A stretch of DNA of 64,000 nt from Maricaulis sp. (lineage in GTDB: Bacteria; Pseudomonadota; Alphaproteobacteria; Caulobacterales; Maricaulaceae): the NCBI RefSeq assembly GCF_017642925.1, contig NZ_JAEPOL010000002.1, positions 202,457 to 266,456 of the forward strand. The letters are read 5' to 3'. How positions within the stretch are numbered: position 1 is the stretch's first letter; every line of letters begins with the position of its first letter. Below the pieces are notes generated by a model. The model saw nothing but the letters and a program-made list of their open reading frames with translations, made no database searches and had not been told where the DNA came from. Shown here in pieces: positions 30,370 to 51,533 of the stretch. A program made the position numbers and the translations under genes.

Positions 30370-30411
30370 TTGACTAAAACTGAAAATGACGCCAACCTCA
30401 TATTTAGTCAA
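30370..30411. promoter_or_regulatory. Operator A: nested concentric palindrome
   Basis: Inner 18-bp site GAAAATG-ACGC-CAACCTC (30382-30399) lies exactly centred inside a perfect 9-bp outer inverted repeat TTGACTAAA/TTTAGTCAA (30370-30378 and 30403-30411). It is in the gap between the divergent transporter and MaoC operons. The inner site matches operators B-F elsewhere in the window. Confidence 0.75.
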
Positions 30412-30438
30412 CACGAAGCTTCCGGACAGGATGTGAGC

Positions 30439-30942
30439 ATGAGCGAAGCCGCACGCGAAATCAGCACCTTCTCCCACTTCGCCGCGGGCGACGAGGTCGG
30501 AGTTTCCGCCTGGATACCGGTGGAACAGAGCATGATCTCAGACTTCGGACGGGTCACGCTCGACCCCGATCCGATGCACATCGACCCGGACTGGGCCGCG
30601 GCCAACGGACCCTATGGCGGCACCATCGCCTTCGGCTTCCTGACCGTCTCCCTGCTCACCCACATGCTGCACGACGCAATGGGCAGCGATCCCCAGCGCG
30701 CAACGGGCGAGAACGGCCACTTCCTCAATTACGGCATGGACTACATGCGCCTGCTCTCGCCGGTGAAGGTGGGAAGCCGCGTACGCGGCCGGTTCAAGGT
30801 GCTGGAAACGCGGACCGACGCGAAAGGGCGCGACATCGTGAAGTTCGGCTGCGAGATCGAGATCGAGGGGAGCGAGCGCCCCGCACTCGTCGCCGAATGG
30901 CTGTCCATCTGGATGCCGCCCGAGGCCGCAGCCTCCGCCTGA
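30439..30942 (+). CDS. MaoC-like enoyl-CoA hydratase
   Basis: 167 aa hot-dog-fold protein. It carries the hydratase-2 motif in the form DPDPMHIDP (Asp42 and His47 match the catalytic Asp/His; Asp44 replaces the usual Asn), then YGGTIAFGFLTVSLL, the conserved lid. MaoC enzymes hydrate 2-enoyl-CoA to (R)-3-hydroxyacyl-CoA. The ATG at 30439 is preceded by AGGA. First gene of the MaoC-ligase-crotonase operon, starting 40 bases after operator A. Confidence 0.88.
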   Translation: MSEAAREISTFSHFAAGDEVGVSAWIPVEQSMISDFGRVTLDPDPMHIDPDWAAANGPYGGTIAFGFLTVSLLTHMLHDAMGSDPQRATGENGHFLNYGMDYMRLLSPVKVGSRVRGRFKVLETRTDAKGRDIVKFGCEIEIEGSERPALVAEWLSIWMPPEAAASA

Positions 30943-30975
30943 GCCCCTCCCTCACGCCATCCGGATATCCACGTC

Positions 30976-32607
30976 ATGACAGCACCCGCCCATCCGCCGC
31001 ATACGCTTCCGCCGACCTTTCCGCGCATCAGCGACTATGTGGCCCACTACGCTGAGCACACGCCCGACGCCGAGGCCATGGTACTGGACGATGAGCGCAT
31101 CAGCTATCGCGTCTTCAACGACCGGATCGATGCCCTCGCCAGGGCGCTGATCGCGGCCGGCGTAGAGAGAGGCGACCGGGTGGCGACGCTTTCCACGCCC
31201 AGTCCCGACTACTTCCTGGCCTTTCTGGCCACGGCGTCAATCGGCGCGATCTGGGTCGGTATGAACCCCCGCTACCAGCTGGAAGAACTCGCGTATGTCG
31301 CCGGAGACAGCGCGCCGGTCGTCCTGCTCGCCCGCTCGCGGATGGACGGACGCGACTATGCCGGCGACCTGCTGGAACTGAAGGCGCGCACGCCCTCGAT
31401 CCGGCAATTGGTCATCTTCGAACGCGACAGCGATCACATACCGGACGGCGCGGTCGCATTCGGGGACTTCCTGGAGGCGGGCGCGTCGCTTTCAGGTAAC
31501 GCCCATGTCGCACAACGTAACGCTAGCGGCGGCCGCGATGCCTGCATGATCGTCTACACGTCGGGCTCGACCGGAAAGCCCAAGGGCGCCCTGCTGCATC
31601 ACGAGGGCATTGTCGGCTTCAGCGTCGAACAGCACGGCATCTGGCCGATCCGACCCATGCGCGCGCTCAACTATTTCCCGATCAACCATATCGGCTGCGT
31701 AGTGGACGTCTCGACCCCCACCCTCACCGCCGGCGGTACGATCGTGTTTCTCGAGCACTTCTCACCGCGCCGCTCGCTGGAGCTGATGCAGGACGAGAAG
31801 GTCTCCTTCTGGGGCTCGGTGCCCAGCACCTTCCAGCTGCAGTTCGCAGATCCCGATTTCGACACATTCGACCTGTCGTCCGTGCAGATGGTTATGTGGG
31901 GCGGCGCGGTCATGCCGCGCGAGCTGATCGAGCGCCTGCTCGGCTACAATGTCCCGCTGGCCACGAATTACGGGCTCACCGAATCCGGCAGCGCCATCAC
32001 CATCGTACCGCCGAGCCGGGATATCGACCTGTTGTCCGGGACCGTCGGCTATCCCTTCCCCGGCACCGAGGTGCGTCTGGTCGACCCGGAGGGCAATACC
32101 GTCGCCGACGGCCAATCGGGCGAGATACTGGCCCACTCGGTCTACAACATGCTGGGCTACTGGAACCGGCCCGAGGCCACGGCGGAGACGCTGCTGCCGG
32201 GCGGCTGGCTGGCGACCGGCGATATCGGCCGGCGCAATCCGGACGGCAGCTACTCCATCGTCGGGCGGGTGAAAGAGATGTACAAATCCGGCGGCTACAA
32301 CGTCTATCCGCGTGAGGTGGAGACCGTTCTGGAAAGCCATCCGGCCGTCGACATGGCCGCGGTGGTCAGCACAGCCGACCCCGTCTGGCAGGAGGTCGGC
32401 GTGGCCTACATCCTGCCCGGGGGCGATCTCGACCTGGACGATCTCAAGGCCTTCTGCCGCGGCCGCTTGGCCAATTACAAACAGCCCAAGCGCTTCGTTG
32501 TTCTCGACGAACTGCCACTGCTGCCGATCGGCAAGGTCGACAAGGTTGCGCTGAAGAAGCGGGCCGCCAACGACTACCGGCCGGCGGACGAAGGAGCGAC
32601 GGCATGA
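30976..32607 (+). CDS. Acyl-CoA synthetase (AMP-binding, class I ANL)
   Basis: 543 aa. ATP/AMP motif YTSGSTGKPKGALL (about 193-206), A5 motif NYGLTESGSA, A7 TGDIGRRNPDGSY, A8 hinge GRVKEMYKSGGYNVYPREVE and the A10 catalytic lysine in LPIGKVDKVALKK. It activates a carboxylic acid to acyl-AMP and acyl-CoA. The fatty or aryl acid is not known, but the adjoining hydratases and carboxylase indicate further breakdown of the CoA thioester. Its stop overlaps the crotonase start (ATGA). Confidence 0.92.
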   Translation: MTAPAHPPHTLPPTFPRISDYVAHYAEHTPDAEAMVLDDERISYRVFNDRIDALARALIAAGVERGDRVATLSTPSPDYFLAFLATASIGAIWVGMNPRYQLEELAYVAGDSAPVVLLARSRMDGRDYAGDLLELKARTPSIRQLVIFERDSDHIPDGAVAFGDFLEAGASLSGNAHVAQRNASGGRDACMIVYTSGSTGKPKGALLHHEGIVGFSVEQHGIWPIRPMRALNYFPINHIGCVVDVSTPTLTAGGTIVFLEHFSPRRSLELMQDEKVSFWGSVPSTFQLQFADPDFDTFDLSSVQMVMWGGAVMPRELIERLLGYNVPLATNYGLTESGSAITIVPPSRDIDLLSGTVGYPFPGTEVRLVDPEGNTVADGQSGEILAHSVYNMLGYWNRPEATAETLLPGGWLATGDIGRRNPDGSYSIVGRVKEMYKSGGYNVYPREVETVLESHPAVDMAAVVSTADPVWQEVGVAYILPGGDLDLDDLKAFCRGRLANYKQPKRFVVLDELPLLPIGKVDKVALKKRAANDYRPADEGATA

Positions 32608-33359
32608 GCCCGGTTCTCTACGAGACCGGCGGCCGCGTCGCGCGGATCACGCTGAACCGACCGGCCCGTCTCAACGCCATCAACGGGGCCATGCTGGACG
32701 GGCTCAACGCGGCGCTGCAGCAAGCTCATGACGACGCGGAAACAGACATCATCCTGCTCGCCGGATCGGGCACCGCCTTTTGTTCCGGCGACGACCTGGT
32801 CGAGCTGGCGTCCAACCCACCCCGGCGGGAAGGGCTGGAAGTCGCGATCGACCGGCTGCAGACCATCACCCGGCTGATCATGTTCGGCCCGAAGACGGTA
32901 GTCTGCGCCGTGCGCGGCTGGGCAATCGGCGGCGGCGCCTCCTGGCCGCTCAATGCCGACATGGTCATCTGGAGCGAAACCGCCGGCATCCGCTTTCCCG
33001 AAGGCCTGCACGGCCTCTTTCCCAGCGGCGGCGCGACGGTCCTGCTGGAACGCTTCTGTGCGCCGCACCGGGCGAACGAGATCCTGATGCTGGGCCGGCC
33101 GCTGAAAGGGCCCGAGCTCGTCCGTGCCGGACTGGCCACCGACCTGGTTCCCGCCGCCGATTTCGACGACCGCGTCTCGGCCTGCCTGCACGGGCTACTG
33201 GCCCTGCCGTCCGGCACGCTGGCCCGCTACAAGACGGCCCGCATCGCCTCCTTGCGCGATCCGGTCGAATGCGCGCTTCAGGCGGAAACCCGTCAGCTGG
33301 CGGACGCGATCGATGCCCTGATCGCGTCCGGCCATTTCCCGGATATCAAAAGGGCCTGA
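32604..33359 (+). CDS. Crotonase-family enoyl-CoA hydratase/isomerase with one catalytic Glu missing
   Basis: 251 aa crotonase fold. CoA-binding FCSGDDLVELA forms the first oxyanion hole and GWAIGGGASWPLNAD the second. The position equal to Glu144 of rat hydratase (GGGxE) is Ser113, whereas the second catalytic glutamate is kept in FPEGLHG (Glu133). Single-Glu crotonases are often isomerases, thioesterases or lyases rather than true hydratases, so the exact reaction is open. Coupled to the ligase gene by ATGA overlap; end of the operon, converging on the S15-type hydrolase gene only 3 bases away. Confidence 0.87.
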   Translation: MSPVLYETGGRVARITLNRPARLNAINGAMLDGLNAALQQAHDDAETDIILLAGSGTAFCSGDDLVELASNPPRREGLEVAIDRLQTITRLIMFGPKTVVCAVRGWAIGGGASWPLNADMVIWSETAGIRFPEGLHGLFPSGGATVLLERFCAPHRANEILMLGRPLKGPELVRAGLATDLVPAADFDDRVSACLHGLLALPSGTLARYKTARIASLRDPVECALQAETRQLADAIDALIASGHFPDIKRA

Positions 33360-33362
33360 GAC

Positions 33363-35231
33363 CTACTCGTCCGACCAGGGCCGCATCGGTACGGAGATAC
33401 GGCTGGCAGCCTCGCCCCCGCGCGCGATCTCGAACACCTCGTCTTCGCCGTTGGAATAGCGCCGGAAATAGGAGGCGTCGGTCCCGGCGATGGCCACGCG
33501 CAGCCGGTGGCCGGCCTCGATCCGGGCCGCGACGGGGAAGAGCGCGAACTCCACCGCCATCTGCTCGCCCGGCACGACCGGCAAGGCGTCCTCGCGACGA
33601 TAGCTGTGCGGCGCCGGGCCCATGTCGTAGGGCAGGGTCTGCGGATCCGCCGGTGCCCGGTGGATGGCGCGGAACTGGCCCTCGGTAAGATAGGTCACGC
33701 GGCCGTCCGGCGCGACATCTTCGAGATAGACGTGGAAGACGGGATCGTCGGTCGCGGTGGCGACATGCAGCTCGATCACCGGCGTGCCGGCGACCTCCAT
33801 GTCCGCCTCGAAGGCCGCGGTATCGAAAGCGATCAGCTTGCCGTCCTCTTCACGCCGGTCCGGATAGGCCGGCGCGGTGCCGAACTGGGTGGACCAGCGG
33901 GTGCGGTCGCCTGTCTGCGCCGTGAAGTCGACCTCGTAGACATCGACACCCGCCACGCCCGGCCGGGCGGTGCTGAGCGTGTTGCCGGCGGCGAGGAAAA
34001 AGTCCGTATCGGCGACGCCTTCCGGCGGCCAGTCCGCCGTCTCGCGGTATTCGCCCGCGCCCATCACATAGTAGTGGATGATGCGGTCATCGTATCCGCG
34101 CTCCATGATACGATTGTAAAAGCCGTCCATCACAGCGAACTGGTCGTCCGGCGCGGGACGGGGGGCCTCGATATCCGGCAGGAAGGGATCGGCCAGCACG
34201 CGGTTGGAGTGGTCATTCCCCGTCAGCCAGATCTCCATCGGCACGTCCGGTGCCGAACGCCAGCGCGCCAGCGCAGCCTCAGCGGTGCCGCCATCGACCC
34301 AGCTGCCCCAGACCTGGGCCGGCGTCGCCTCGCGGCGGATGCCGTCCAGATGGGCGGCCGGTGCCGACTGGAAGAAGACATAACCGTTGAGCCCGGCATC
34401 GTCGTGGAATTCCATCTGGGCGTAATCGTCCGGCGCCCAGCGCTCGCGCCCGGCCAGCGCCTCCCGCAACAGGGCATAGTCGTCATCCCCGTCTACCGGT
34501 GCCAGGATCGGCCATAGCGGCGCGCAGTCCTCGGCCCGGGCCAGGCAGTCATAGTCCTCGCCTGGCCGCGGCGAACGGCCCTCGTCGGCGGTCTTGGTCG
34601 CCCCACCCCAGTTCTGCAGGAACCACTCATTGGCTACGCCGCCGGGGAAGAAGAGCTGCAGGAAGACGTCGAAGTCCACCTCGCGGATGATCGCCCCCTT
34701 CAGCGCCGGCGCTGGCCGGCTGGTGGCGATGTCGGCCGTGTCCGCCATGTAGGACGTGCCCTGCGCAAAGACATTCCCGTCCGACCAGGGCTGGGCGGCG
34801 ATATGGCCGATCAACACGTCCATATCCTCGATTTCCGCCGGCCCGATATCCACCCGCCGGGGGCCGAAGGAGGAGGTCGAGCCGCGCGTGTCGACCGACG
34901 CCAGCACGTAGCCAGCCTCCACGAAGCGTTCGAAGCTGCGGATCATGCCCTCGCGCCCGTAGCGGGTCTGCACCAGGATTGTCGGACGCGGGGTCTCGGG
35001 CTCGACCCCGCCGGGATAATAGAGGCTCATCGCCACGCGGACGCCATCCGCCATCTCGACATAATAGGACCGGTCGGAGCGCCGGACCTCGGCCTCGGCG
35101 GCCGGTTGCGCCGCGTCTTCAGCGCCCTCGCCTGCCGGCTCCGTGCCCGGGGAACAGGCCGTAAGCAGGAGGACGAGAGCGGTGCCGGCCAGAAGGACGG
35201 ACGCGCGGCGGGTGCGGGCGTGGATCGGCAT
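33363..35231 (-). CDS. CocE/NonD (S15-type) hydrolase, lipoprotein
   Basis: 622 aa. A lipobox LLTAC (Cys26) predicts a lipid-anchored periplasmic protein. The alpha/beta-hydrolase domain has the nucleophile in AQGTSYMAD (Ser160; the second Gly of GxSxG is Ala). A helical cap and a C-terminal jelly-roll PepX-C domain (about 420-620) follow. The family includes X-Pro dipeptidyl peptidase, cocaine esterase and glutaryl-acylases, so it cuts an ester or amide, likely an acyl-amide or terminal dipeptide of the imported compound. It follows TBDT3 by 10 bases in one operon under operator B. Confidence 0.88.
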   Translation of the reverse strand: MPIHARTRRASVLLAGTALVLLLTACSPGTEPAGEGAEDAAQPAAEAEVRRSDRSYYVEMADGVRVAMSLYYPGGVEPETPRPTILVQTRYGREGMIRSFERFVEAGYVLASVDTRGSTSSFGPRRVDIGPAEIEDMDVLIGHIAAQPWSDGNVFAQGTSYMADTADIATSRPAPALKGAIIREVDFDVFLQLFFPGGVANEWFLQNWGGATKTADEGRSPRPGEDYDCLARAEDCAPLWPILAPVDGDDDYALLREALAGRERWAPDDYAQMEFHDDAGLNGYVFFQSAPAAHLDGIRREATPAQVWGSWVDGGTAEAALARWRSAPDVPMEIWLTGNDHSNRVLADPFLPDIEAPRPAPDDQFAVMDGFYNRIMERGYDDRIIHYYVMGAGEYRETADWPPEGVADTDFFLAAGNTLSTARPGVAGVDVYEVDFTAQTGDRTRWSTQFGTAPAYPDRREEDGKLIAFDTAAFEADMEVAGTPVIELHVATATDDPVFHVYLEDVAPDGRVTYLTEGQFRAIHRAPADPQTLPYDMGPAPHSYRREDALPVVPGEQMAVEFALFPVAARIEAGHRLRVAIAGTDASYFRRYSNGEDEVFEIARGGEAASRISVPMRPWSDE

Positions 35232-35241
35232 GGCTTATCCC

Positions 35242-37449
35242 CTAGTAGCGCAGGTTCAGGCTGACGCCGACGGTGGCCGGGTCGTTGAGCACGATGAATT
35301 TCTGACCGACCACATCCTGACTGGACAGATCAAACAGGCGTTCCTTCACCGTCTCGTCGAAGATATTGCGACCCCACAGATTGATCCGCCAGCGGCCATC
35401 CGACGATTCCAGACCGATATTGAGGTTCACCAGAGCGTAGGCGTCGACATGGCCGTCCTCCTGGTTGTCGACGGTGAGATAGCTCTCTCCACGCATCAGC
35501 ACCTCGCCACCCACGAACCAGTCGGTGCCCGGCGTCAGGGGCGTCCGGTATTCAGCATTCAGATTGGCCGTATAGTCCGGCGCCCGAGGGATGTCGGCAA
35601 GCGGTGCACCGTTGGGAAGCGTGCCCTCGTCGAACTCGGCCTCCAGCAGCGCGGCGTTGAAGCCAAGCGTCAGATTGTCGGTCGGCTGGGCAAGGATTTC
35701 CAGTTCCAGCCCCTGGCTATGCGCCGCGCCAGCATTGACGATGATCGGATCGTAAACGGGCGTCGCTGGATTGTCGCCTGCGACCTGGATATCACTCCAG
35801 TCCATATAGAAGGCCGTGACATTGGCCTGCATCAGTCCGTTGAACAACGTCGTCTTCAGGCCCGCCTCGTAGTTCCACAGGGTTTCCGGGTCGAAAGAGA
35901 TGCCGTTGGCGTCGCCCAGCGCATCGTTGAAACCGCCGCTCTTGAAGCCGCGGCTGACCGTGGCATAGCCCATGACGTCGGGCGTGAAGCGGAAGCGCAC
36001 ATTGGCACTGGGCGTGAACTCGGCCCAGTCGTCCTCGGCGGAGACGGCGAAGTCGCCGCCCAGCAGGCCGACCGGATCGGACTGGGAATAGTTGATCGAC
36101 TTTTCCTCGGTCGTGTAGCGACCGCCCAGGGTGAAATCGAGCCGGTCGGAAACGTTCCACGTGCCCGCGCCGAAGACGGCAATGCTGGTCGTGTCCATGG
36201 CCGCATCCGAGCCCGCCTGGATACCGGCTAGCGACGGCGCCCCGAGCAGGGTCATCAGATCGCCGCCCAGCTCGATGAAGCTGAGATTGTTAGTCTCCTG
36301 CTGGTAATAGTAGAGGCCACCGACCCAGTCGAAATCACCGCTCGACCAGGACAGGCGCAGCTCGTTGGAGAAGCGCGAGACCTCTTCGGGATCCCCGTCA
36401 TAGGCCCATTCCAGCGCCGACCGGTCGGTGTCGGTGCGGTTGGCATAGTCGTGCGTGCGGTAGGCGGTGATGTTCACCAGCTCCACATCGCCGATCATGG
36501 TCATGAAATGGGAGGCCACGCCCCAGGCTTCGGACCGCTCATAGGTGATGTCGTCGGCATAGACATTACGGTCGAACGGATCAGCGTTACGCGGCAGGCC
36601 GTACAGATCCAGCACCGTCGCGAAGGTGGTGGCGTCGTTGTAGTTCAGCGTCTCAAAGACCAGCGAATCCTGGTCCACCTCGCGATAGTCGGCGCTCAGC
36701 CGCCACTCGGTCTGGTCGCCGATATCAAACAGGAGCTGGCCGCGGGCCGACCAGGAATCCTCGGTGTTCACCTCCTCGTCGAGCACGACATTGTAGGACG
36801 TGCCGCCGCGCTGGTTACGCACGAAGGCGAGCCGGCCGGACACACGGTCGCCGATCAGCGGACCGCTGACCCCGCCGCCGATGCGGCGGTGATCGTAATC
36901 GCCGATCTCCGCTTCCAGATAAGCCTCGAACTCGTCGGTCGGACGGGCCGTGGTGTAGTGGATGAGCCCGCCGATCGTGTTGCGGCCGAACAGCGTGCCC
37001 TGCGGACCGCGCAGGACCTCGATCCGTTCCATGTCGAACAGGTCGATCGTGGCCCCTACCCCCTGACCGAGGAAGACCTCGTCGAGATAGAAGCCGACAG
37101 CACCGTCGGCACCGGCCGAACCGGAACCGCCGATCACGCCGCGCAAGGAGGTGGGCGAGAGCTTTTCGTCGCCGTAATTGCCGTAGGCCAGGCCGGGCGT
37201 GCGGATCGCGACGTCGGCGATGTCGGTGATGCCGGCCCGTTCGATCATGCCCTCGGTGAAGGCCGTCACCGAGATCGGCGTTTCCTGGATCGACTCCTCG
37301 CGCTTGCGGGCGGTGACGACGATCGTCTCGATGCCGCCGCGCACCTGCGTGCCGGCCGCGGCATCGGTGTCCTGCGCCAGGACGGTCCCCGCCGCCGCGG
37401 TCAGGGCCAGAACGCTCGCACCCGCGAGTCCCGTTTTATGACAATTCAT
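35242..37449 (-). CDS. TonB-dependent receptor (TBDT3)
   Basis: 735 aa. The signal peptide ends near GTVLAQ. TonB box IETIVVTARKREES, a plug with EVLRGPQGTLFGRNTIGG, and a barrel ending NLRY. No STN domain, so it is a simple transporter and does not signal to a FecR. The start is at 37449, with GGAGGA upstream. An in-frame ATG at 37470 is rejected because it would sit against operator B and would lengthen the signal peptide. Operator B (37476-37493) lies 27-44 bases upstream, and a TTGACA hexamer (minus strand, 37520-37525) lies further upstream. Confidence 0.92.
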   Translation of the reverse strand: MNCHKTGLAGASVLALTAAAGTVLAQDTDAAAGTQVRGGIETIVVTARKREESIQETPISVTAFTEGMIERAGITDIADVAIRTPGLAYGNYGDEKLSPTSLRGVIGGSGSAGADGAVGFYLDEVFLGQGVGATIDLFDMERIEVLRGPQGTLFGRNTIGGLIHYTTARPTDEFEAYLEAEIGDYDHRRIGGGVSGPLIGDRVSGRLAFVRNQRGGTSYNVVLDEEVNTEDSWSARGQLLFDIGDQTEWRLSADYREVDQDSLVFETLNYNDATTFATVLDLYGLPRNADPFDRNVYADDITYERSEAWGVASHFMTMIGDVELVNITAYRTHDYANRTDTDRSALEWAYDGDPEEVSRFSNELRLSWSSGDFDWVGGLYYYQQETNNLSFIELGGDLMTLLGAPSLAGIQAGSDAAMDTTSIAVFGAGTWNVSDRLDFTLGGRYTTEEKSINYSQSDPVGLLGGDFAVSAEDDWAEFTPSANVRFRFTPDVMGYATVSRGFKSGGFNDALGDANGISFDPETLWNYEAGLKTTLFNGLMQANVTAFYMDWSDIQVAGDNPATPVYDPIIVNAGAAHSQGLELEILAQPTDNLTLGFNAALLEAEFDEGTLPNGAPLADIPRAPDYTANLNAEYRTPLTPGTDWFVGGEVLMRGESYLTVDNQEDGHVDAYALVNLNIGLESSDGRWRINLWGRNIFDETVKERLFDLSSQDVVGQKFIVLNDPATVGVSLNLRY

Positions 37450-37475
37450 CCCCTGCCCTCCTCCAAGCATTTTAT

Positions 37476-37615: not shown

Positions 37616-38374
37616 TTACGCTTGGCCGCGTGTCGTCTCTCGCGGCTTGAACTCGAGCGCAGTCAAGGACTTGGCCAGACCTTCCAAGCCGCTCGGCAGG
37701 TCGAGGCCAGGGTAGAGGACCCTGAACCAGATGACCGAGAGCGCCTTCGCCAGATCGTCGGCCTCGGGTGCCGCCTTTTCCAGGAAATCGACGAAATCCG
37801 TATCCGGATAGACCACGACCCGGCGCATGATCTCGTCCATCATCGAGCCCAGAGCCCAGACTGCGAACAGCGCTGCGCTTGGATCAACCGAACCGTCGGG
37901 ATGATTCTTCACCACGCTGCGCGCGACGCGCTCGTACCAGGCGCGGTTGGTGGAATGGACCAGACGGCTGAAATCCCCGTCCTCGTCACTCATCTGGAAG
38001 ACGCTGCGCATCAGGCCGGCATTGGCCCGCACGGTCTCAATCCAGCTGGCATTGGCGTAGTGGATCGAGTCGAAGGGCCCGTGACCGCGGCCGGCCTGAT
38101 TGGTGCCGACGAGTTGCATACCTTCGAGGAATTCGCGCAGCACGGTCAGCGCCACATCCTTCTTGTCCTTGAAGTACATGTAGAAGGAACCGTCGGACGA
38201 CTTGGCCGCCTTGGTAATGTCGCTGACCCGCATCGCATGATATCCGGTCCGCTCCAGCACGCGCGCCGTGGCAAGCTTGAAGCGTTCGCGGGTGCGTTCG
38301 CCCTTGCGCTTGGGCGGATCGTTCTTCAGGCGCCGCGCGAGCTGCGCCTTGTAGCTTTCGACTGTGGCTTCCAT
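37616..38374 (-). CDS. TetR-family regulator, probable controller of the peptide/acyl regulon
   Basis: 252 aa. An N-terminal helix-turn-helix lies at about residues 35-75 (HAMRVSDITKAAKSSDGSFY, then MYFKDKKDVA), and a long ligand domain follows. There are two adjacent starts, GTG (38377) and ATG (38374); the ATG is used with GGGAAG upstream. It sits in the middle of the operator-bearing region, between the DppA/TRAP operon and TBDT3. A diverged copy of the same palindrome (operator F) lies 83 bases upstream, as expected for autoregulation. TetR proteins usually repress and release DNA on ligand binding; acyl-CoA would be a natural ligand here. Assignment of the operators to this protein is inference. 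Confidence 0.87.
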   Translation of the reverse strand: MEATVESYKAQLARRLKNDPPKRKGERTRERFKLATARVLERTGYHAMRVSDITKAAKSSDGSFYMYFKDKKDVALTVLREFLEGMQLVGTNQAGRGHGPFDSIHYANASWIETVRANAGLMRSVFQMSDEDGDFSRLVHSTNRAWYERVARSVVKNHPDGSVDPSAALFAVWALGSMMDEIMRRVVVYPDTDFVDFLEKAAPEADDLAKALSVIWFRVLYPGLDLPSGLEGLAKSLTALEFKPRETTRGQA

Positions 38375-39360: not shown

Positions 39361-39364
39361 GGCG

Positions 39365-42164: not shown

Positions 42165-42183
42165 GGGGCTTGGGCTCCCGGGT

Positions 42184-44361: not shown

Positions 44362-44404
44362 GGTCAATCCCCCAAGAAAACCTGCTGCGAAACCCGCTTA
44401 AACG

Positions 44405-44422
44405 AAATATGAGATCAGTTTC
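44405..44422. promoter_or_regulatory. Operator C before TBDT4
   Basis: Read towards TBDT4 the site is GAAACTG-ATCT-CATATTT. The distal half is identical to operator B and the gene-proximal half is degenerate. The last bases overlap the M81 stop codon. Confidence 0.65.
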
Positions 44423-45911
44423 ACTTATTTTGCAAATCTGTCAACAAACTTGCGACCGGCAAAACATCGTCGACCGGCCAGACCGGCCGCTGAAGGTGTT
44501 GATAGGGCAGGCTCGCCAAGTCCGGATTCATCGCGGTAGGCGTGCCGACCGACAAGATCCGGTCAGCCAGCGGTGCGAAGGAGGCGCGGAAATGGGTCGA
44601 GGATTTCAGGACGATAATCGCGTAGTCCGACGGGTCCGCACCGGTCGCGGTAAACAGGCCCGGCCACAGCGCCTCGCGCCGGCTGCCGCACAGGATGAAA
44701 TCGGCAAACCCGGTCCTGAACCGGGCCACCGGCCCGACCGGCGGCCCCGCCGCCGCGTCCGCCGGACCCCGCTCGACCCGTTCGGCCAGTCCGGCCACCA
44801 CCCCGTCGACCCGGATCGGATCGCCGGAGAGCCGGGACATCCGGCCGCCAATATCGAGCGTCAGGCGCGCGCCGGTCCCGGCCTTCAGACACGCGTCCAG
44901 CGAGACCGGATCGTTGAACAGGGCCACGCCGATACCCCTGTATCCGGCATCGCGCAGGACCGCGACGAGATGAGTGGCGTCGCCATCGGCGCCCCCGCCC
45001 GGATTGTCTGACGCGTCGGCCAGCACGATCCGCTCGCCGGCATGATCGGCGATGCGCGCCAGCCCTTCGGCGATGGATAGCGGCCGTTCCGCCGCCTCTT
45101 CCGCGATGGCGGCGAAGTGTTCGGCCAGGGTCAGGGCCGTCCGGCCGGCCAGCTCCCGATCGCCATCCGCATAGACCAGGAGTTTGGCGCCATTGTCGGC
45201 ACTGTCGCTCCAGGGGAATCCGTGGATCAGCGACACCGAGAGCACACCGCCCGCGCCGGTTTCGGCCTCGCGCATGGCGCGGACGAAGGCACGCATCGGA
45301 TCGCGCGTCGTCGGAAAGCCGCCCAGGGCCCGGCAGGCCACCACCGCCGCCACGGGTCGCGTTTGCCCCTTCACCAGCGCATGAGCGAGCATGAACAGCT
45401 CCCGGCCGCGCTCGGCCACATCGGTATGGGGATACTCCTTGTAAGCATGCAGCAGATCCGCCGCGTTCAGCATAGCGGGGCTAAGCGTGGCGTGCAGGTC
45501 CAGTAGGCCGGCCACGACGGTGGCCCGGCCCGCGACCTCGCGGATCGCGGCGAGGAGATCGCCTTCGCAGTCCGGCACGCCATGCGCCGCCATCGCGCCG
45601 TGCAGGTCGAGCAGGACAAGGTCGACCGGCAGGCTCGCACTCAGGGCATCGAGGATGTCCCGCTTCAGAGCGGTATAGGCCCCGGCCGTGACAGGCCCGC
45701 CGGGCACGGCATAGGCCACGGGTCCGCGGTACACCTCCATCCCGGCTGCCCGTGCCGACTCAATCATGGCGCTACAACCAGGATGGGTCAGGGCGCACAC
45801 CGGCCCCTCGCCCGCTGCCGAATAGGCACCGGCCCGGAAGTCCGCGAGCGTCGTAGCGCGCGCGACAAAACTGTTCGTTTCCGTCCGCAGAGCGGCGACG
45901 TAAGCTCTCAT
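44421..45911 (-). CDS. M81-family metallopeptidase, MlrC-like
   Basis: 496 aa, near the usual MlrC length. The family's residues are visible: Glu11 (RTETNSF), the LLDLHGAM block (Asp102, His104), GLLDLHATL (Asp138, His140) and KEYPHTD (His162), the zinc site, then the C-terminal domain with ADASDNPGGGADGDAT. In microcystin degraders MlrC cuts the linear products next to the beta-amino acid Adda, but the M81 family is broad and most members have no known substrate. It is cytoplasmic. Divergent from the DmpA-like gene across operator D and directly upstream of TBDT4. Confidence 0.88.
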   Translation of the reverse strand: MRAYVAALRTETNSFVARATTLADFRAGAYSAAGEGPVCALTHPGCSAMIESARAAGMEVYRGPVAYAVPGGPVTAGAYTALKRDILDALSASLPVDLVLLDLHGAMAAHGVPDCEGDLLAAIREVAGRATVVAGLLDLHATLSPAMLNAADLLHAYKEYPHTDVAERGRELFMLAHALVKGQTRPVAAVVACRALGGFPTTRDPMRAFVRAMREAETGAGGVLSVSLIHGFPWSDSADNGAKLLVYADGDRELAGRTALTLAEHFAAIAEEAAERPLSIAEGLARIADHAGERIVLADASDNPGGGADGDATHLVAVLRDAGYRGIGVALFNDPVSLDACLKAGTGARLTLDIGGRMSRLSGDPIRVDGVVAGLAERVERGPADAAAGPPVGPVARFRTGFADFILCGSRREALWPGLFTATGADPSDYAIIVLKSSTHFRASFAPLADRILSVGTPTAMNPDLASLPYQHLQRPVWPVDDVLPVASLLTDLQNK

Positions 45912-45933
45912 GCCGCAATCCTGACAATTTTAT

Positions 45934-45951
45934 GAGGTTGACGTCAATTTC
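45934..45951. promoter_or_regulatory. Operator D between M81 and DmpA-like genes
   Basis: GAGGTTG-ACGT-CAATTTC on the plus strand; 5 of 7 base pairs of the arms match as a palindrome. It is in the divergent promoter region and may serve both directions. The plus-strand half is the one shared by all sites (CAnTTTC). Confidence 0.7.
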
Positions 45952-46049
45952 ATTTTTTTTCACTGTTCCGGTCATACAGCCCCTGCTGTCCCCGGACCGG
46001 GACAGCGAAAGGAACCGACCCCGTTGTCCATGCCGGAGACCATGAGACC

Positions 46050-47210
46050 ATGAAGACCAGTCACTCCCTGATATCCATCGCCTTGGCCGGCGGCCTTGTC
46101 ATCACCTCGGCGGCCTGCGCCCAGGACGCGCCCCGGGCCCGCGACATTGGCATTCCGCTGGAAGGCGAGACCGGACCGCTCAATGCCATCACCGATGTGG
46201 CAGGCGTCGAGGTCGGCCAGTTCAGCCTGAACGAGGGCGACACCCATACCGGGGTGACAGCGATCTTCCCGCGCGGCCGCACGGCGACCGACGGCGTCCC
46301 CGCCGGCATCTTTTCCTTCAACGGCACCGGCGAGATGACCGGCGCGCACCTGATCAACGAGTTCGGCGCCTTTTTCGGTCCGGTCGCGATCACCGGCACA
46401 CTGGGTGTCGGCGCCGCCCGCGACGGCATCCTGGACTGGACCGCGCAGAATTTCGACGATCCCACCGTGCGCTTCAGCCGCGTGCTGCCGGTCGTGGCGG
46501 AAACCTATGACGGCGGGCTGAGCGATGTCTGGAGCATGGCCCTGACCCCCGAGCATGTCGTCGCGGCACTGGATGCCGCCCGGCCGGGACCGGTCGCGGA
46601 AGGCGCGGTCGGCGGCGGGACCGGCATGGTCTGCTACTACTTCAAATGCGGGATCGGCACGTCGTCGCGCGTCGTGCACTACGGCGAGGACATCGCCTTT
46701 ACCGTCGGCGTGCTCGTCCAGGCCAATCATGGCGGGCGCGACCAGTTGCGCATCGCCGGCACGCCGGCCGGCCAGGAGATCGACGACCTGATGCCGCGTC
46801 GCGCCAGCCAGGCCGATGCGGCCGGCGAGGGCGACGGTTCGATCATCATCGTGATCGCCACCGATGCACCGCTGCTGCCCGACCAGCTGCGCCGCCTGGC
46901 GCGCCGCGCCACGATCGGCATGGGCCGCACCGGCGGACAGGGCGATTCCAGCTCGGGCGACATCTTCCTCGCCTTCACCACCGCCAATCCGGTGACGCTC
47001 GGCGCGGGCGCGCCGCTCGACTATCAGAGCATTCCCGGCGAAGCGCTCGACCCGCTGTTCGACGGTGTCGTGCAGGCCACCGAAGAAGCCATTCTCAACG
47101 CGCTCGTCGCCGGCAGCGACACGACCGGGCGGGGCAATTCGCACGTCTACGGTCTGCCGCATGACCGGGTTCGCGAAATTCTCGCCCGCTACGGCCGACT
47201 CGAAGACTGA
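46050..47210 (+). CDS. P1-family (DmpA/BapA-like) aminopeptidase, exported
   Basis: 386 aa. A signal peptide ends near AACAQD. It belongs to the self-processing N-terminal nucleophile family of DmpA (D-aminopeptidase/D-esterase) and BapA (beta-peptidyl aminopeptidase). The processing site is Gly263-Ser264 in GEGDGSIIIVIATDAP, with Asn226 (QANHGG) and Ser302-Asp304 (SSGDIF) as active-site neighbours; DmpA has Glu where this has Asp304. It should release N-terminal D- or beta-amino acids in the periplasm. First gene of the DmpA-S12-PhyH operon driven from operator D. Confidence 0.88.
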   Translation: MKTSHSLISIALAGGLVITSAACAQDAPRARDIGIPLEGETGPLNAITDVAGVEVGQFSLNEGDTHTGVTAIFPRGRTATDGVPAGIFSFNGTGEMTGAHLINEFGAFFGPVAITGTLGVGAARDGILDWTAQNFDDPTVRFSRVLPVVAETYDGGLSDVWSMALTPEHVVAALDAARPGPVAEGAVGGGTGMVCYYFKCGIGTSSRVVHYGEDIAFTVGVLVQANHGGRDQLRIAGTPAGQEIDDLMPRRASQADAAGEGDGSIIIVIATDAPLLPDQLRRLARRATIGMGRTGGQGDSSSGDIFLAFTTANPVTLGAGAPLDYQSIPGEALDPLFDGVVQATEEAILNALVAGSDTTGRGNSHVYGLPHDRVREILARYGRLED

Positions 47211-47232
47211 TCCACACACAAGGACACACGCC

Positions 47233-48657
47233 ATGATCCAGAGACTTGCCCTGCCGGCCGCCATGACGGCCCTCGCCGCCGCCGGCAGCCTGCTCGCCGG
47301 CTGCGCCACCGCGCAGCCCGCAGCCGACCCTCAGACCGCCGCCATCGACGCCCTGGTCGCCGACGCCCAGTCGTCGGCGCCCTATCCGGGCCTGGCGGTA
47401 TCCGTGCGCCGCGGCGACACCCTCATCTACGAGGCTGCCTATGGCGAAGCGGACCTGGAACAGCACGCCGCGGCCACGCCCGACACCGTGTTCCAGATCG
47501 GCTCCATCACGAAGTCCTTCACCGCCCTCATGATCGCCCAGCTGGCGGCCGAGGGCCGGATCGACATCGAGGCGCCGATCTCCACCTATCTGCCGGACTA
47601 TTCCGGGCCGGCCCGCGACGTGCCGGTGCGCGACCTGATGAACCACACGGCCGGGCTGGTGAACTACACCGCCCTGCCCGACTTCCCCCAGGGCAGCCAA
47701 CGCACCGTCACGCGCGAGATCATGCGCGACTATTTCGAGGATGCCGACCTGCTGTTCGAACCGGGCACGGCCTTCTCCTATTCCAATTCGGGCACCTATA
47801 CGCTCGGCCTGATCATCGAGGCGGTGACCGGACAGACCTATGACGCCGCACTCGCCGAACGCGTGCTGGAACCGCTCGGCCTCGACCGCACCTATTATGC
47901 CGGCTACGAGCGCGTCATCGAGGGCAGGGCCGAGGGCTATGTCGTCGGCGAGGACGGTTTCCTCAACGCGCCCCAGCTCGATCCGCTGGTGCCCTTCTCG
48001 GCCGGTGCCCTTCTGTCCACCGTCCAGGACATCCAGGACTATATCGACCAGGTGCAACGCCAGAACGTGTTCGGCGACGCGGTCCGCGACATGCTCTACG
48101 AACAGGTCGAACTTGGTGGCGATACGCTGGCCTATGCCCTCGGCGCGCTGGTGATCCGCGACTGGGAAGGCCATCGCAAGATCGCCCATGCCGGCGATAT
48201 CGACGGGTTCGCGGCCTACATGTCCTACTATCCCGACGAGGATCTTTCGATCATGGTGATGGGCAGCACGCGCGACGTCGCGCCCACGCCGGTGGGCCTT
48301 GAACAGAAGATCGCCCGCATCGTCTTCGACCAGCCGCGCCCGACGCCGTCGATCGATCCGCTGGCCGACAGCGAGATCGCGGCGATAGCCGGAAACTATG
48401 ATGCCAGCTACATGCGGATCGGCATCGACCGTATCGGCATTCTGCCGCGCGAGGGCGGGATCGCCTTCCGCATCGGCGGTGTCGATGCCCAGGGCCCGGC
48501 CATCCCGCTGCTTCACCTGGAAGGCCGTACCTTCCTGGCTGCCCATGACGACGAGATGGTGTTCAGCTTCTCGCCCGAGGACGGCGGCACGCCGGAAGAC
48601 CTGACCGTCGACTGGCTGGGCGGCGGCATTCCCTTCGTCCGCGCAGCCGGGGAGTAG
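47233..48657 (+). CDS. S12 serine hydrolase (beta-lactamase/MlrB-like), lipoprotein
   Basis: 474 aa. Lipobox LLAGC. Penicillin-binding-protein-like motifs: SITK (Ser91, Lys94), YSN (in FSYSNSGT) and HAG (in IAHAGDIDG), the S12 catalytic set. The C-terminal 130 residues form an extra beta-rich domain as in PBP4*-like and MlrB-like hydrolases. MlrB, which cuts linear microcystin, is an S12 protein of this size class, but S12 enzymes are widespread, so function is only suggested by context. The start at 47233 has AAGGA upstream. It lies 22 bases after the DmpA-like gene. Confidence 0.88.
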   Translation: MIQRLALPAAMTALAAAGSLLAGCATAQPAADPQTAAIDALVADAQSSAPYPGLAVSVRRGDTLIYEAAYGEADLEQHAAATPDTVFQIGSITKSFTALMIAQLAAEGRIDIEAPISTYLPDYSGPARDVPVRDLMNHTAGLVNYTALPDFPQGSQRTVTREIMRDYFEDADLLFEPGTAFSYSNSGTYTLGLIIEAVTGQTYDAALAERVLEPLGLDRTYYAGYERVIEGRAEGYVVGEDGFLNAPQLDPLVPFSAGALLSTVQDIQDYIDQVQRQNVFGDAVRDMLYEQVELGGDTLAYALGALVIRDWEGHRKIAHAGDIDGFAAYMSYYPDEDLSIMVMGSTRDVAPTPVGLEQKIARIVFDQPRPTPSIDPLADSEIAAIAGNYDASYMRIGIDRIGILPREGGIAFRIGGVDAQGPAIPLLHLEGRTFLAAHDDEMVFSFSPEDGGTPEDLTVDWLGGGIPFVRAAGE

Positions 48658-48662
48658 GCGGG

Positions 48663-49460
48663 ATGATCGACGACGACGCGAAGGCAGACTACGCACGCGA
48701 CGGTGTCTGCGTGCTGCGCGGCGCCTTCGCGCCGGCGTGGATCGAGACCGTGGCCGAGGGGGTTCGCCAGGCGCTCGACGCGCCCGGCCCCCACGGCGAA
48801 CGCTACGGCCCCGCCGGGGCGGAGCGCTTCTTCGGCGATCTGGACATGTGGACGCGCCTGGACCCGTTCCGGGACTTCGTCATGAACTCGCCCGCCGCCG
48901 AGATCGCCGGCCGGACGATGGGGTCGTCCACGGCGACCTTTCTCTACGACCAGATGCTGGTGAAGGAACCGGGCAGCCAGCAGCGCACGCCCTGGCATCA
49001 GGACCAGCCCTATTGGGCCGTCAGCGGTTTCCAGGTCTGCTCGATCTGGATGCCGCTGGATCCGGTGCCCCGCGAAGTGTCGCTGGAATTCGTGCGCGGC
49101 AGCCATCGCTGGGACCAGGCCTTCAATCCCACCCATTTCGCAGACGGCACTCCCTATGCCGGCACCGGCCTGCCCAGCCTGCCCGATATCGAGGCTGACC
49201 GGTCGGCCTATGACATCGTGTCCTGGGATCTGGAACCCGGCGATTGCGTGGTGTTCCAGGCGATGCTGGTGCATGGCGCGCCGGCCAATCCCAGCGCCGG
49301 GCGCCGGCGGGTCCTGTCGACGCGCTGGCTGGGCGACGATGCCCGCTTCTGGCGGCGTCCCGGCGAGATCGCCGTACCGACCACCCTGCCCGATCTGGAA
49401 GACGGCGCACCCTTTTCTGGACCGCTGCATCCGACTGTCTGGCGCCGCGAGGCCGGCTAG
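48663..49460 (+). CDS. Phytanoyl-CoA dioxygenase (PhyH) family protein
   Basis: 265 aa Fe(II)/2-oxoglutarate dioxygenase: HxD at His112-Asp114 (PWHQDQPYW), distal His204 (MLVHGAPAN) and the 2-oxoglutarate arginine in GRRRVLSTRW. It hydroxylates an unactivated carbon, in this family often an acyl chain or a small amide. It starts 5 bases after the S12 gene, so it is part of the same operon. In this setting it could hydroxylate the acyl part of the substrate before beta-oxidation; that is inference. Confidence 0.88.
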   Translation: MIDDDAKADYARDGVCVLRGAFAPAWIETVAEGVRQALDAPGPHGERYGPAGAERFFGDLDMWTRLDPFRDFVMNSPAAEIAGRTMGSSTATFLYDQMLVKEPGSQQRTPWHQDQPYWAVSGFQVCSIWMPLDPVPREVSLEFVRGSHRWDQAFNPTHFADGTPYAGTGLPSLPDIEADRSAYDIVSWDLEPGDCVVFQAMLVHGAPANPSAGRRRVLSTRWLGDDARFWRRPGEIAVPTTLPDLEDGAPFSGPLHPTVWRREAG

Positions 49461-49474
49461 CTCCAGAGTACAGG

Positions 49475-50452
49475 CTAGCCCCAAAGCACGGGCCGGGGCG
49501 GGTCGACCCGACCGGCGTCGAATGTGAGCCCGTTCGGCCAATCGTGCGCAAGAAGCAGCGGCCCATCGATGTCCACGAAATCGCACAAGCACCCCAGGAC
49601 GAAACTCGGCGCCATCGCCAGCGAGGTCCCCATCATGTTGCCGACCATCAGACCGAGGCCCGCCTCCCGCGCCATGCGGGCCAGGCGCATCGCCTCGGTC
49701 AGCCCGCCGGTCTTGTCGAGCTTGATATTGATGCGCTGGTAACGGCCGCGCACGGCGTCCAGCTCGCCCGAATGCAGGCAGCTTTCGTCGGCGCACAGGG
49801 GCACCGGCGAGACATATCCGTCCAGTGCCGCATCCTGGCCGCGCGGCAGGGGCTGTTCGAGCATTTCCACGCGCAGGCGCGCCATGGCGGGCGCCACGTC
49901 GCGAAGCTGTTCGATCGTCCAGCCTTCATTCACATCGACAACCAGGACCGCGTCGGGCCGCACGGCGCGGATCGCCTCGATCCGCTCGACCGGGCGGTCG
50001 GCATTCAGCTTCACCTTGAGCACCGGAACCGGGCCGGCCCGCCGGGCCGTGTCCGCCATCATCTCCGGGTCCGGCTCCAGACCGATGGTGACGGCAGTGG
50101 TCAACCGCCGCGGCTCGACGCCGATCAGCGCCCAGATCGACCGTCCGCTCCGCTTCGCATCCAGATCCCAAAGGGCGCAGTCGACAGCATTGCGCGCGCC
50201 GCCCGGCGGCAGGACAGTCTGCAGCACATCGCGCGTGATGCCGTCCGGGTACGCAGCGATGAAGGCCCGCACTTCCTCGAGAATGCTCCGCGCCGTCTCG
50301 CCGCAATAGAAGACGCCCTCGGCCTCGCCCCGGCCGCGATGGCGACCCTCCTCGGCCGTGACGATGAGCGCATGGGTGGCATCGAAGACGGCGCTTGCAA
50401 TACGGAACGGGGCCTTCAGCGAAAACCGGTGGAGCTCGACGGTCAGGCGCAT
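49475..50452 (-). CDS. dgcA: DgcA-like N-acetyl-D-glutamate racemase (enolase superfamily)
   Basis: 325 aa enolase-superfamily enzyme of the dipeptide epimerase/muconate-lactonising subgroup. Catalytic KxK is Lys146-Lys148 (LKVKLN); metal ligands are Asp173 (VVDVNEGW), Glu199 (EMLEQP) and Asp222 (CADES), with the second lysine in INIKLDKTGG. Paired with a DUF1611 gene it matches the DgcN-DgcA pathway described in marine Proteobacteria, where DgcA racemises N-acetyl-D-glutamate to the L form. A plain L-Ala-D/L-Glu epimerase is the alternative. Its ATG shares one base with the stop of dgcN. Confidence 0.85.
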   Translation of the reverse strand: MRLTVELHRFSLKAPFRIASAVFDATHALIVTAEEGRHRGRGEAEGVFYCGETARSILEEVRAFIAAYPDGITRDVLQTVLPPGGARNAVDCALWDLDAKRSGRSIWALIGVEPRRLTTAVTIGLEPDPEMMADTARRAGPVPVLKVKLNADRPVERIEAIRAVRPDAVLVVDVNEGWTIEQLRDVAPAMARLRVEMLEQPLPRGQDAALDGYVSPVPLCADESCLHSGELDAVRGRYQRINIKLDKTGGLTEAMRLARMAREAGLGLMVGNMMGTSLAMAPSFVLGCLCDFVDIDGPLLLAHDWPNGLTFDAGRVDPPRPVLWG

Positions 50453-51468
50453 TACGCCTCGCCCCTGCCCTGCAGTAGCCGATCGGCGATCGCACCGCCG
50501 CCGGTGCGGACCGGATCGATGACCGGCAGACCCAACCGAGCCGCAGTCTCCGCGATCAGCGCCTCTGCCGCCGCAGCGTCCAGGCCCGCGGTGTTCAGAC
50601 TGACCCCTGCGCAGTAACAGTCCGGACTGGTCAGCCGGGCCGCCTCCAGATTACGGGCGATCGCGGTCTCCAGCGCCGGCGTGGGATAACCGTCGAAGAA
50701 TGCGATCTTGTCGCGGCCCGCCTGGTGGCAGAGCACGACGGCTTCCGGTTGGGCGCCGTGTAGCAGACCGAGCGACACGCCTGCATAGGCGGGATGAAAG
50801 AGCGAGCCCTGCCCCTCGATCACGTCCCAGTGATCCGCTCCGGCCGCCGGCGCCAGCACTTCGGCGGCCCCGGACATGAAGTCACCGATCACCGAGTCGA
50901 TGGCAAAGCCGCGGCCGGAGATCAGCACGCCGGTCTGGCCCGTCGCACAAAAATCCGCTTCAACGCCCCGTTCGCGCAGGGCCCGCCAGAGGGCGAGGGC
51001 CGTATACTTCTTGCCCACAGCGCAGTCCGTACCGACAGTCAGCACACGATGCCCCGGACGCGGCAGTCCGCTGCCGATCGGCAGACCCGGCGGCGGGTCG
51101 CGTAGGTCCGTGAGCTTACACCCCGTCGCGTCGGCCAGAGCACGCAGCGCGCCGAGTGCGTTGAGCCGGATGTGCAAGCCCGCGGCAATATCCAGACCAG
51201 CCTCGAGCGCGGCACGGAACACATCGAGCCAGCGGTCGTCCATCGCACCGCCCGGGCTGGCTGTGCCCACCACGAGCGTTTTCACGCCCGCCGCCCGCGC
51301 GGCCTCGATCGTCATGTCGGGCAGGCCGAGATCGACAGCCCCGGCGCTCAGGCGCAGCTGACCCGCACAGCGTTCCGGCGCCCAGTCGGCGATCCCCGCC
51401 CCGGTCTTGGCGATCAGGCGGTCCGGCGCATCACCGAGAAAGATGAGATAGGGTGGAAGGACCTTCAT
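50452..51468 (-). CDS. dgcN: DgcN-like D-glutamate N-acetyltransferase (DUF1611)
   Basis: 338 aa. DUF1611 fold with an N-terminal Rossmann domain (MDDRWLDVF region) and a C-terminal P-loop (VGTDCAVGKKYTALAL, about 145-160), then TGQTGVLISG, GDFMSGAAE and EGQGSLFHPAYAGVS. DgcN of marine bacteria acetylates D-glutamate so that DgcA can racemise it. Directly upstream of dgcA with a one-base overlap. The operon has operator E 48-65 bases ahead of the ATG. Confidence 0.88.
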   Translation of the reverse strand: MKVLPPYLIFLGDAPDRLIAKTGAGIADWAPERCAGQLRLSAGAVDLGLPDMTIEAARAAGVKTLVVGTASPGGAMDDRWLDVFRAALEAGLDIAAGLHIRLNALGALRALADATGCKLTDLRDPPPGLPIGSGLPRPGHRVLTVGTDCAVGKKYTALALWRALRERGVEADFCATGQTGVLISGRGFAIDSVIGDFMSGAAEVLAPAAGADHWDVIEGQGSLFHPAYAGVSLGLLHGAQPEAVVLCHQAGRDKIAFFDGYPTPALETAIARNLEAARLTSPDCYCAGVSLNTAGLDAAAAEALIAETAARLGLPVIDPVRTGGGAIADRLLQGRGEA

Positions 51469-51515
51469 GCTCGCAATCGCTTTGCAATCTACGCCCGCAA
51501 ACGGGCCATTTTAAT

Positions 51516-51533
51516 AAATACGATATCAGTTTC
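51516..51533. promoter_or_regulatory. Operator E before dgcN
   Basis: Read towards dgcN the site is GAAACTG-ATAT-CGTATTT; the distal half equals operators B and C. TTAAAAT follows on the gene side. Confidence 0.65.

What the first reader, a model, noticed from the sequence alone, without database searches (positions are those of the whole stretch)
30370..51533. One 18-bp palindrome at five (possibly six) promoters defines a candidate regulon
Sites at 30382, 37476, 44405, 45934 and 51516 read, towards the genes, GAAAATG-ACGC-CAACCTC, GAAACTG-AGGA-CAGTTTC, GAAACTG-ATCT-CATATTT, GAAATTG-ACGT-CAACCTC and GAAACTG-ATAT-CGTATTT. The distal half GAAAnTG is kept in all five, the spacing is identical, and an AT-rich stretch such as TAAAAT follows in most. 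A sixth, weaker copy (38457) precedes the TetR gene. All sites are intergenic (site C overlaps the end of the M81 gene by 2 bases), and together they cover every transcription unit from the GPH transporter to dgcN. I saw no copy upstream of the sulfatase genes or the GABA operon. The similarity to the GAAAC-type palindromes of fatty-acid TetR regulators such as PsrA points to the TetR at 37616.
Basis: partly seen in the sequence, partly recalled or inferred. Interest (0 to 1): 0.85.

Follow-up and report, generated by a model that had tools for sequence, protein, structure and literature searches.

The report
TetR operator set of peptide-degradation island
Five matching DNA switches, plus a shorter sixth, sit in front of the genes of one catabolic gene cluster, and the same switches recur at matching places in related bacteria that carry the same repressor gene, so this is very probably one repressor's private regulon for breaking down an unusual peptide or acylated compound.

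Summary
In detail: the five palindromes are where stated. A matrix built from them, scanned over 15 regions (32-40 kb) around TetR relatives in 13 other genomes, gives 41 sites >=16, 34 intergenic, against a mean of 0.3 intergenic for 200 permuted palindromes; with all 22 regions, 43 and 35. Orthologous promoters carry the site at conserved distances. In the 3.61-Mb home genome the refined 20-bp form (<=2 mismatches) occurs at 6 places: A-E and one coding place. TetR-linked dgcN regions have 22 sites in 158 kb (8 of 8 regions); 19 regions with dgcN but no such TetR have 4 in 372 kb (4 of 19). Corrections: the shared core is a 14-bp dyad TGA-N8-TCA, which the sixth copy also fits; the spacing is not PsrA's; the regulon reaches 24913 through a GPH-SDR-carboxylase operon. 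Best explanation: a local, probably self-regulated TetR repressor, perhaps relieved by an acyl-CoA, controlling uptake and catabolism of an acylated or D-Glu-containing peptide. Binding, repression and ligand are inferred. New member of a known kind.

The parts
30381..30400 (+). Operator A, between GPH (-) and MaoC (+)
   Evidence: Sequence; PWM 20.8; the same gap carries a site in G765a, G789, G736, G592 and Pacificimonas L136
37475..37494 (+). Operator B, upstream of TonB receptor 1; near-perfect palindrome, just downstream of a sigma70-like -10
   Evidence: present upstream of TBDR1 in 8 of 10 relatives' regions with a TBDR1 of >=54% identity, not in G635 and L144
38456..38469 (+). Operator F (probable), 14-bp core TGA-N8-TCA upstream of TetR
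   Evidence: does not match the 18/20-bp form
44404..44423 (-). Operator C, upstream of the TonB receptor 2 / TRAP / M55 operon
   Evidence: present between M81 and TBDR2 in 6 of 6 module-2 regions, scores 11.7-18.0
45933..45952 (-). Operator D, between M81 (-) and S58-S12-PhyH (+)
   Evidence: present between S58 and M81 in 6 of 6 module-2 regions, scores 13.5-17.5
51515..51534 (-). Operator E, upstream of dgcN-dgcA, between a -35-like and a -10-like hexamer
   Evidence: weaker counterpart (14.3) upstream of DgcN in G726 and G667a
37616..38374 (-). TetR regulator (252 aa)
   Evidence: Pfam TetR_N 3.9e-9; model pLDDT 88.5
24913..28155 (-). Biotin-dependent acyl-CoA carboxylase, end of the likely GPH operon
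   Evidence: Pfam; 22-nt gap to the SDR
28178..28960 (-). Short-chain dehydrogenase
   Evidence: Pfam; start from gene call; overlaps GPH by 4 nt
28957..30273 (-). GPH/MFS_2 symporter
   Evidence: Pfam, NCBIfam gph 203.5 bits, cut-off 231.35
30439..30942 (+). MaoC-like dehydratase
   Evidence: Pfam
30976..32607 (+). AMP-forming acyl-CoA ligase
   Evidence: Pfam
32604..33359 (+). Enoyl-CoA hydratase/isomerase family
   Evidence: Pfam
33363..35231 (-). CocE/NonD (S15) hydrolase
   Evidence: Pfam, NCBIfam CocE_NonD 238.2 bits, cut-off 66.3
35242..37470 (-). TonB-dependent receptor 1
   Evidence: Pfam
38527..39393 (-). M55 D-aminopeptidase
   Evidence: Pfam
39365..42209 (-). TRAP transporter DctQ, DctP, DctM
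   Evidence: Pfam
42184..44367 (-). TonB-dependent receptor 2
   Evidence: Pfam
44421..45911 (-). M81 (MlrC-like) metallopeptidase
   Evidence: Pfam; NCBIfam MlrC 296.4 bits, cut-off 999
46050..47210 (+). S58 (DmpA-type) aminopeptidase
   Evidence: Pfam
47233..48657 (+). S12 serine hydrolase (beta-lactamase fold)
   Evidence: Pfam; start from gene call
48663..49460 (+). PhyH-type dioxygenase
   Evidence: Pfam
49475..50452 (-). DgcA, N-acetyl-D-Glu racemase
   Evidence: NCBIfam 400.6 bits, cut-off 400
50452..51468 (-). DgcN, N-acetyltransferase
   Evidence: NCBIfam 456.1 bits, just under the cut-off of 480

Best explanation
The palindromes are operators of the TetR-family regulator at 37616-38374. 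Their common core is a 14-bp dyad TGA-N8-TCA. Most sites extend it towards a 20-bp palindrome TGAAAnTGAnnTCAnnTTCA, in which a second core would overlap the first by 8 bp, so one or two dimers could bind. The regulator represses the promoters of a catabolic island (24913-51468), probably including its own, which encodes two TonB receptors, TRAP and GPH transporters, several peptidases, D-glutamate catabolism (DgcN/DgcA) and an acyl-CoA pathway. Repression is perhaps lifted by a CoA thioester made by the island's own acyl-CoA ligase. Shown by computation: the sites, their conservation, their near-confinement to the island and their co-occurrence with the TetR. Inferred: binding, repression, autoregulation, the ligand, and acquisition of the island from outside the family.
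For: 41 sites >=16, 34 intergenic, in 15 TetR-bearing regions against null means 1.1 and 0.3; all 22 regions: 43 and 35 against 1.25 and 0.4. Intergenic DNA is 61,807 of 588,937 bases in the 15. De novo dyad counting in the relatives, window excluded: ATGA-N7-CTCA in 17 segments against 0.8 expected. Same orthologous gaps and distances. 5 of 6 genome-wide matches are A-E. Equal-span control: 8 TetR-linked dgcN regions have 22 sites in 158,389 bases (8 of 8); 19 dgcN regions without a TetR relative have 4 in 372,221 bases (4 of 19). At E <=1e-20 the TetR is in 1 of 137 family genomes, the home genome. Helices of the type [DE]G[STL]FYxY[FY][KR]DK go with the motif; four relatives with PVLYxY (G801, G817, G691, G667b) have 0 sites >=16. 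All six module-2 TetR genes have an exact 14-bp core across the start codon. None of the other 19 island genes has a DNA-binding regulator domain by Pfam.
Against: No binding or expression data. The 15 regions were chosen from 22 by TetR identity after the hits had been seen; the 22-region count is given for that reason. Three relatives with the same helix type (L139, L142, L143) have no site >=16, only intergenic variants at 12.6-15.4; L144, with another helix, has 4 hits >=16. G635 has one site and none before its TBDR1; G592 has none before its DgcN. Module-2 sites upstream of TBDR2 go down to 11.7. Site E lacks an exact TGA-N8-TCA. The window's TetR promoter has only the short form, and the cores across module-2 TetR starts are also coding. 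Promoter-like matches are at chance level (2 against 1.6). The sharing of TGA-N8-TCA among sites is partly built in, since sites were found with a matrix that favours it. No GC anomaly marks the island. Fold matches to FadR are weak (best E 5e-5, TM 0.5-0.56).
Confidence: 0.86

Rival explanations
1. The palindromes are operators of a different, unlinked regulator (for example a global one), and the TetR is a bystander.
For: No binding data; the window's TetR promoter carries only the short core; L144 has strong hits with a different helix.
Against: Genome-wide matches are nearly confined to the island; sites recur across families with the TetR and are 13 times rarer per base around dgcN loci without it; they broadly follow the recognition helix.
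Confidence: 0.08
2. The TetR is a true PsrA/FadR-type regulator of general fatty-acid metabolism.
For: Weak HTH and fold similarity to Bacillus FadR; acyl-CoA genes in the regulon.
Against: Misses the FadR cut-off (41.2 of 200 bits); PsrA spacing differs; the only other close genome-wide match is in coding DNA of a tolA-like gene.
Confidence: 0.05
3. Chance or mobile palindromes of AT-rich intergenic DNA.
For: The loose 18-bp pattern occurs at 18 places genome-wide; perfect short dyads in relatives are only at shuffle level.
Against: Permuted palindromes give 0.3 against 34 intergenic hits in relatives; positions relative to start codons are conserved.
Confidence: 0.01

Closest known systems
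FadR of Sulfolobus acidocaldarius (SaFadR)
   Same: One TetR repressing a 30-kb cluster from four genomic sites, a dyad motif, one- or two-dimer binding, release by acyl-CoA (PMC6449355, abstract text and passages seen); among the Foldseek hits (6en8, 6el2)
   Different: Sequence relation is distant; 16-bp motif; lipase/beta-oxidation cluster, not peptide or D-Glu genes
FadR (YsiA) of Bacillus
   Same: Fold and HTH similarity; acyl-CoA genes as targets (PMC6449355 passage)
   Different: Below the family cut-off; its operator was not compared by any search
PsrA of Pseudomonas
   Same: TetR family; GAAAC arms
   Different: N4 spacing against N8 here; not named among the 50 fold rows shown or the 8 NCBIfam hits
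mlr microcystin pathway and DgcN/DgcA D-glutamate pathway
   Same: M81 and S12 hydrolases, DgcN and DgcA in the regulon; diverged TetR, MaoC and TonB receptor in Sphingosinicella microcystinivorans (L146), and also acyl-CoA ligase, CocE and GPH in Novosphingobium THN1
   Different: None of the 20 island genes is of the CPBP/Abi type (MlrA's family by my recall); M81 far below the MlrC cut-off; no link to mlr genes found

Membership tests
TetR family | TetR_N HTH domain over the Pfam cut-off | tested here: met
   36.6 bits, cut-off 24
TetR family | All-helical fold with C-terminal ligand domain | tested here: met
   Model pLDDT 88.5, helices only; 87 PDB matches with E <=0.001, the 50 rows shown being transcriptional regulators by title
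PsrA | Operator GAAAC-N4-GTTTC | tested here: not met
   Arms 8 apart in site B; core TGA-N8-TCA
FadR (Bacillus type) | NCBIfam equivalog score over 200 | tested here: not met
   41.2 bits
FadR (Bacillus type) | Release from DNA by long-chain acyl-CoA | not testable with these tools
   Needs a binding assay
Microcystinase MlrC | NCBIfam MlrC exception score over 999 | tested here: not met
   296.4 bits
DgcN/DgcA D-Glu pathway | Both proteins at equivalog level | tested here: inconclusive
   DgcA 400.6 against 400 met; DgcN 456.1 against 480 just missed

The most novel reading that the evidence does not exclude
The island is a complete pathway for an acylated or beta-amino-acid-containing, D-Glu-containing nonribosomal peptide (a cyanopeptide such as a microcystin or nodularin type, or its linear fragments): outer-membrane uptake, D-/beta-peptidases, D-Glu racemisation and CoA-dependent breakdown of the acyl part. 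It would be switched by a TetR that senses the CoA thioester of that acyl part. The window joins two modules that other genomes keep apart under two TetR paralogues, so one repressor has taken over both.
Probability: 0.17. Interest if true: 0.75.

Novelty: new member of a known kind. Interest (0 to 1): 0.47.

Why it matters
It gives a defined operator, a candidate regulator and a defined target set for an uncharacterised catabolic island whose module 1 is seen in Caulobacter/Hyphomonadaceae, Sphingomonadales and a Niveispirillum (names). The regulon groups genes that annotation alone would treat separately (DgcN/DgcA, M81/S58/S12/M55 hydrolases, TonB receptors, an acyl-CoA pathway) into one inducible pathway. 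That makes the substrate question testable with a single reporter.

Tried and rejected
PsrA identity by operator: rejected on spacing. Hit C30:82064: inside the end of what I read as a tolA-like gene, rejected. First dgcN control: 22 loci away from the TetR, +-1.5 kb, had 0 sites >=16 (best 15.4), but by the same yardstick only 1 of 7 TetR-linked dgcN loci had one, so I set it aside and repeated it over about 20 kb; from the 22 I left out L118, L126 and L129, whose genomes hold a TetR relative elsewhere, giving 19. Sites at the TetR start in module 2 (12.4-13.9 in four regions): first taken as chance; the check found an exact 14-bp core across the start codon in 6 of 6, so they stay open, but they are coding and the six are related. 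Direct literature on this regulon: nothing seen in the listings (open-access library only). M81 relatives on plasmids: 383 records, 12 seen, none of them the THN1 plasmid, so no mlr link shown or excluded. Promoter scan: chance-level counts. GC profile and tRNA scan gave no island boundary. One further 14-bp core at 4653 lies outside the regulon.
Full report
Observation. A matrix from four sites finds the fifth at ranks 9, 12, 2, 5 and 5 of 63,983 positions for A to E. The bare 18-bp pattern is not specific (exact at 18 places genome-wide, 4 of them A-D). The 20-bp form TGAAANTGANNTCANNTTCA with up to 2 mismatches is: 6 places in 3.61 Mb, five being A-E, the sixth inside coding DNA. With up to 3 mismatches there are 44 strand hits against 8 for the reversed control.

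Independent test. At E <=1e-20 the TetR gene occurs in 1 of 137 genomes of its family, the home genome only, in 9 of 385 of the class sample and in 21 of 398 of the order sample, the home genome counted each time. I fetched 28 regions around relatives. Twenty-two went into; after seeing it I kept 15, with TetR identity of about 42% or more, for the main count, leaving G620b (41%), G801, G817, G691, G667b, G532 and G609. With a matrix from the window sites, the 15 regions hold 41 hits >=16, 34 intergenic; 200 permuted palindromic matrices average 1.1 and 0.3, maximum 9 and 4. At >=18 it is 28 and 26 against 0.3 and 0.1. All 22 regions give 43 and 35 against 1.25 and 0.4, maximum 11 and 8. De novo counting of spaced 4-mers in the relatives' intergenic DNA, window excluded, finds the same element (ATGA-N7-CTCA in 17 of 233 segments against 0.8, TGAA-N6-CTCA 16 against 1.0). 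Perfect 5- and 6-mer dyads in the same call are only at shuffle level (top count 6 against null maxima 3 to 5).

Positions. The gap GPH/MaoC (site A) carries a site in 4 of 4 regions with that divergent pair and in Pacificimonas. The gap S58/M81 (site D) and the gap M81/TBDR2 (site C) carry one in 6 of 6 module-2 regions, scores down to 13.5 and 11.7. TBDR1 relatives of at least 54% identity have it in 8 of 10, G635 and L144 being the exceptions. DgcN has a weak one (14.3) in G726 and G667a; in the six module-2 regions it lies behind a receptor gene whose promoter has the site (in G765b that gene went unnamed); G592's DgcN has none. Centres lie 36-48 nt before MaoC in 7 of 8 cases (the eighth 72) and 32-46 nt before M81 in the 5 cases listed, window included; G577 and G765b fell out of that list because the script's gene call covered their site.

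Anatomy of the site. In 40 of 42 sites >=15.5 (window included) at least one TGA-N8-TCA is present, in 5 of them both registers; this is partly built in, as the sites were found with the window matrix. TGAR-N6-YTCA is 0.60 per kb between genes and 0.07 per kb within genes in the 15 regions, and 4 against 0 in the window; four scrambled control dyads reach at most 0.11 per kb. Six relatives' TetR promoters have TGAR-N6-YTCA within 260 nt, of the 22 examined besides the window's (G635, G562a, G562b, S. lycopersici, Niveispirillum, ERG5), and several carry a full site. In module 2 the exact core spans the TetR start codon in 6 of 6, where it is also coding. Overlapping cores suggest one- or two-dimer binding as described for SaFadR and QacR (PMC6449355, passages); that is inference.

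Link to the TetR. Over equal spans of about 20 kb, 8 TetR-linked dgcN regions have 22 sites >=16 in 158,389 bases (8 of 8 regions); 19 dgcN regions with no TetR relative at 1e-10 have 4 in 372,221 bases (4 of 19). The 15 main regions have 2.78 sites per 40 kb; 13 regions with more distant TetRs have 0.61 (5 hits in 326,339 bases), and 67 loci of weakly related TetRs have 0.25 (7 in 1,141,672 bases) (count of loci). The helix is [DE]G[STL]FYxY[FY][KR]DK in 14 of the 15 (G667a's was not displayed), and different in the twelve other relatives shown (G193's, QGTFYLYFKDK, is close); those of G493, G304 and G223 were not displayed. Against a clean rule: L139, L142 and L143 share the helix but have only variants below 16, and L144 with another helix has 4 hits; L136, L139, L140, L142, L143, L144, L146 and L216 were printed but left out of the rates.

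What the regulon does. By Pfam and NCBIfam the island holds two TonB receptors, TRAP and GPH transporters, M55, M81, S58, S12 and CocE hydrolases, PhyH, DgcN/DgcA, and an acyl-CoA ligase, MaoC, ECH, SDR and biotin carboxylase. GPH, SDR and carboxylase overlap or nearly touch, so site A should control genes down to 24913. Relatives show two modules; in G765 they are separate loci with separate TetRs. A tree (five distant rows dropped, G667a not included) puts the window TetR in the module-1 clade (support 0.99) and the module-2 TetRs in their own clade (1.00). The window therefore probably has one TetR for both modules. Substrate: an acylated or D-Glu-containing peptide is my inference. The presence of a diverged TetR plus parts of module 1 in two microcystin degraders (THN1's status from PMC6167471, passages; Sphingosinicella's from its name and a title in the listing) is a lead only.

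The TetR itself. Model pLDDT 88.5. Foldseek nearest by E-value: FadR of B. halodurans, DarR, EthR, FadR of B. subtilis; TM (query) 0.49-0.65 among them, highest for EthR. It meets no curated equivalog. Operator B differs from PsrA by spacing. An acyl-CoA ligand is plausible, about even odds.

Verdict. A real, conserved, local regulon; the regulator assignment is strong by comparative evidence, binding and ligand untested. New member of a known kind.

Noticed in passing
window 24913-30273 (-): GPH, an SDR and a biotin acyl-CoA carboxylase form one likely operon, extending the regulon beyond the finding's span; the carboxylase is divergent to DgcN with a weak site (14.3) in G726 and G667a.
   Followed up: partly
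L146 3199-7470 and L216 20001-35870: Diverged relatives of the TetR with MaoC and TonB receptor (L146), and also acyl-CoA ligase, CocE and GPH (L216), in the microcystin degraders Sphingosinicella microcystinivorans and Novosphingobium sp. THN1 (megaplasmid).
   Followed up: partly
window 51962-63928: The GABA-transaminase/SSADH block next to the island also lies beside the island in G319 (another family); no site was found upstream of it in either.
   Followed up: no
home genome C28:11069-12070: A second DgcN (50% identical) lies elsewhere in the home genome.
   Followed up: no
window 4653-4666: An isolated intergenic copy of the 14-bp core TGAR-N6-YTCA outside the regulon, probably chance.
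   Followed up: no
L079/L080 (G667a): TetR and several island genes appear split by frame shifts in this metagenome-assembled genome, perhaps sequencing errors.
   Followed up: no
L144 5423, 9881, 10751: Sandaracinobacter has two such TetRs, the one displayed with an altered recognition helix, and intergenic-looking sites of a variant type (TGACGTCAGT, TGATATCAGT), a possible specificity shift; G620b has a similar variant at 19395.
   Followed up: partly
L004 1456-1480 and five other module-2 TetR genes: The 14-bp core spans the TetR start codon in 6 of 6, with the middle six bases differing, a possible autoregulatory operator inside the gene.
   Followed up: partly
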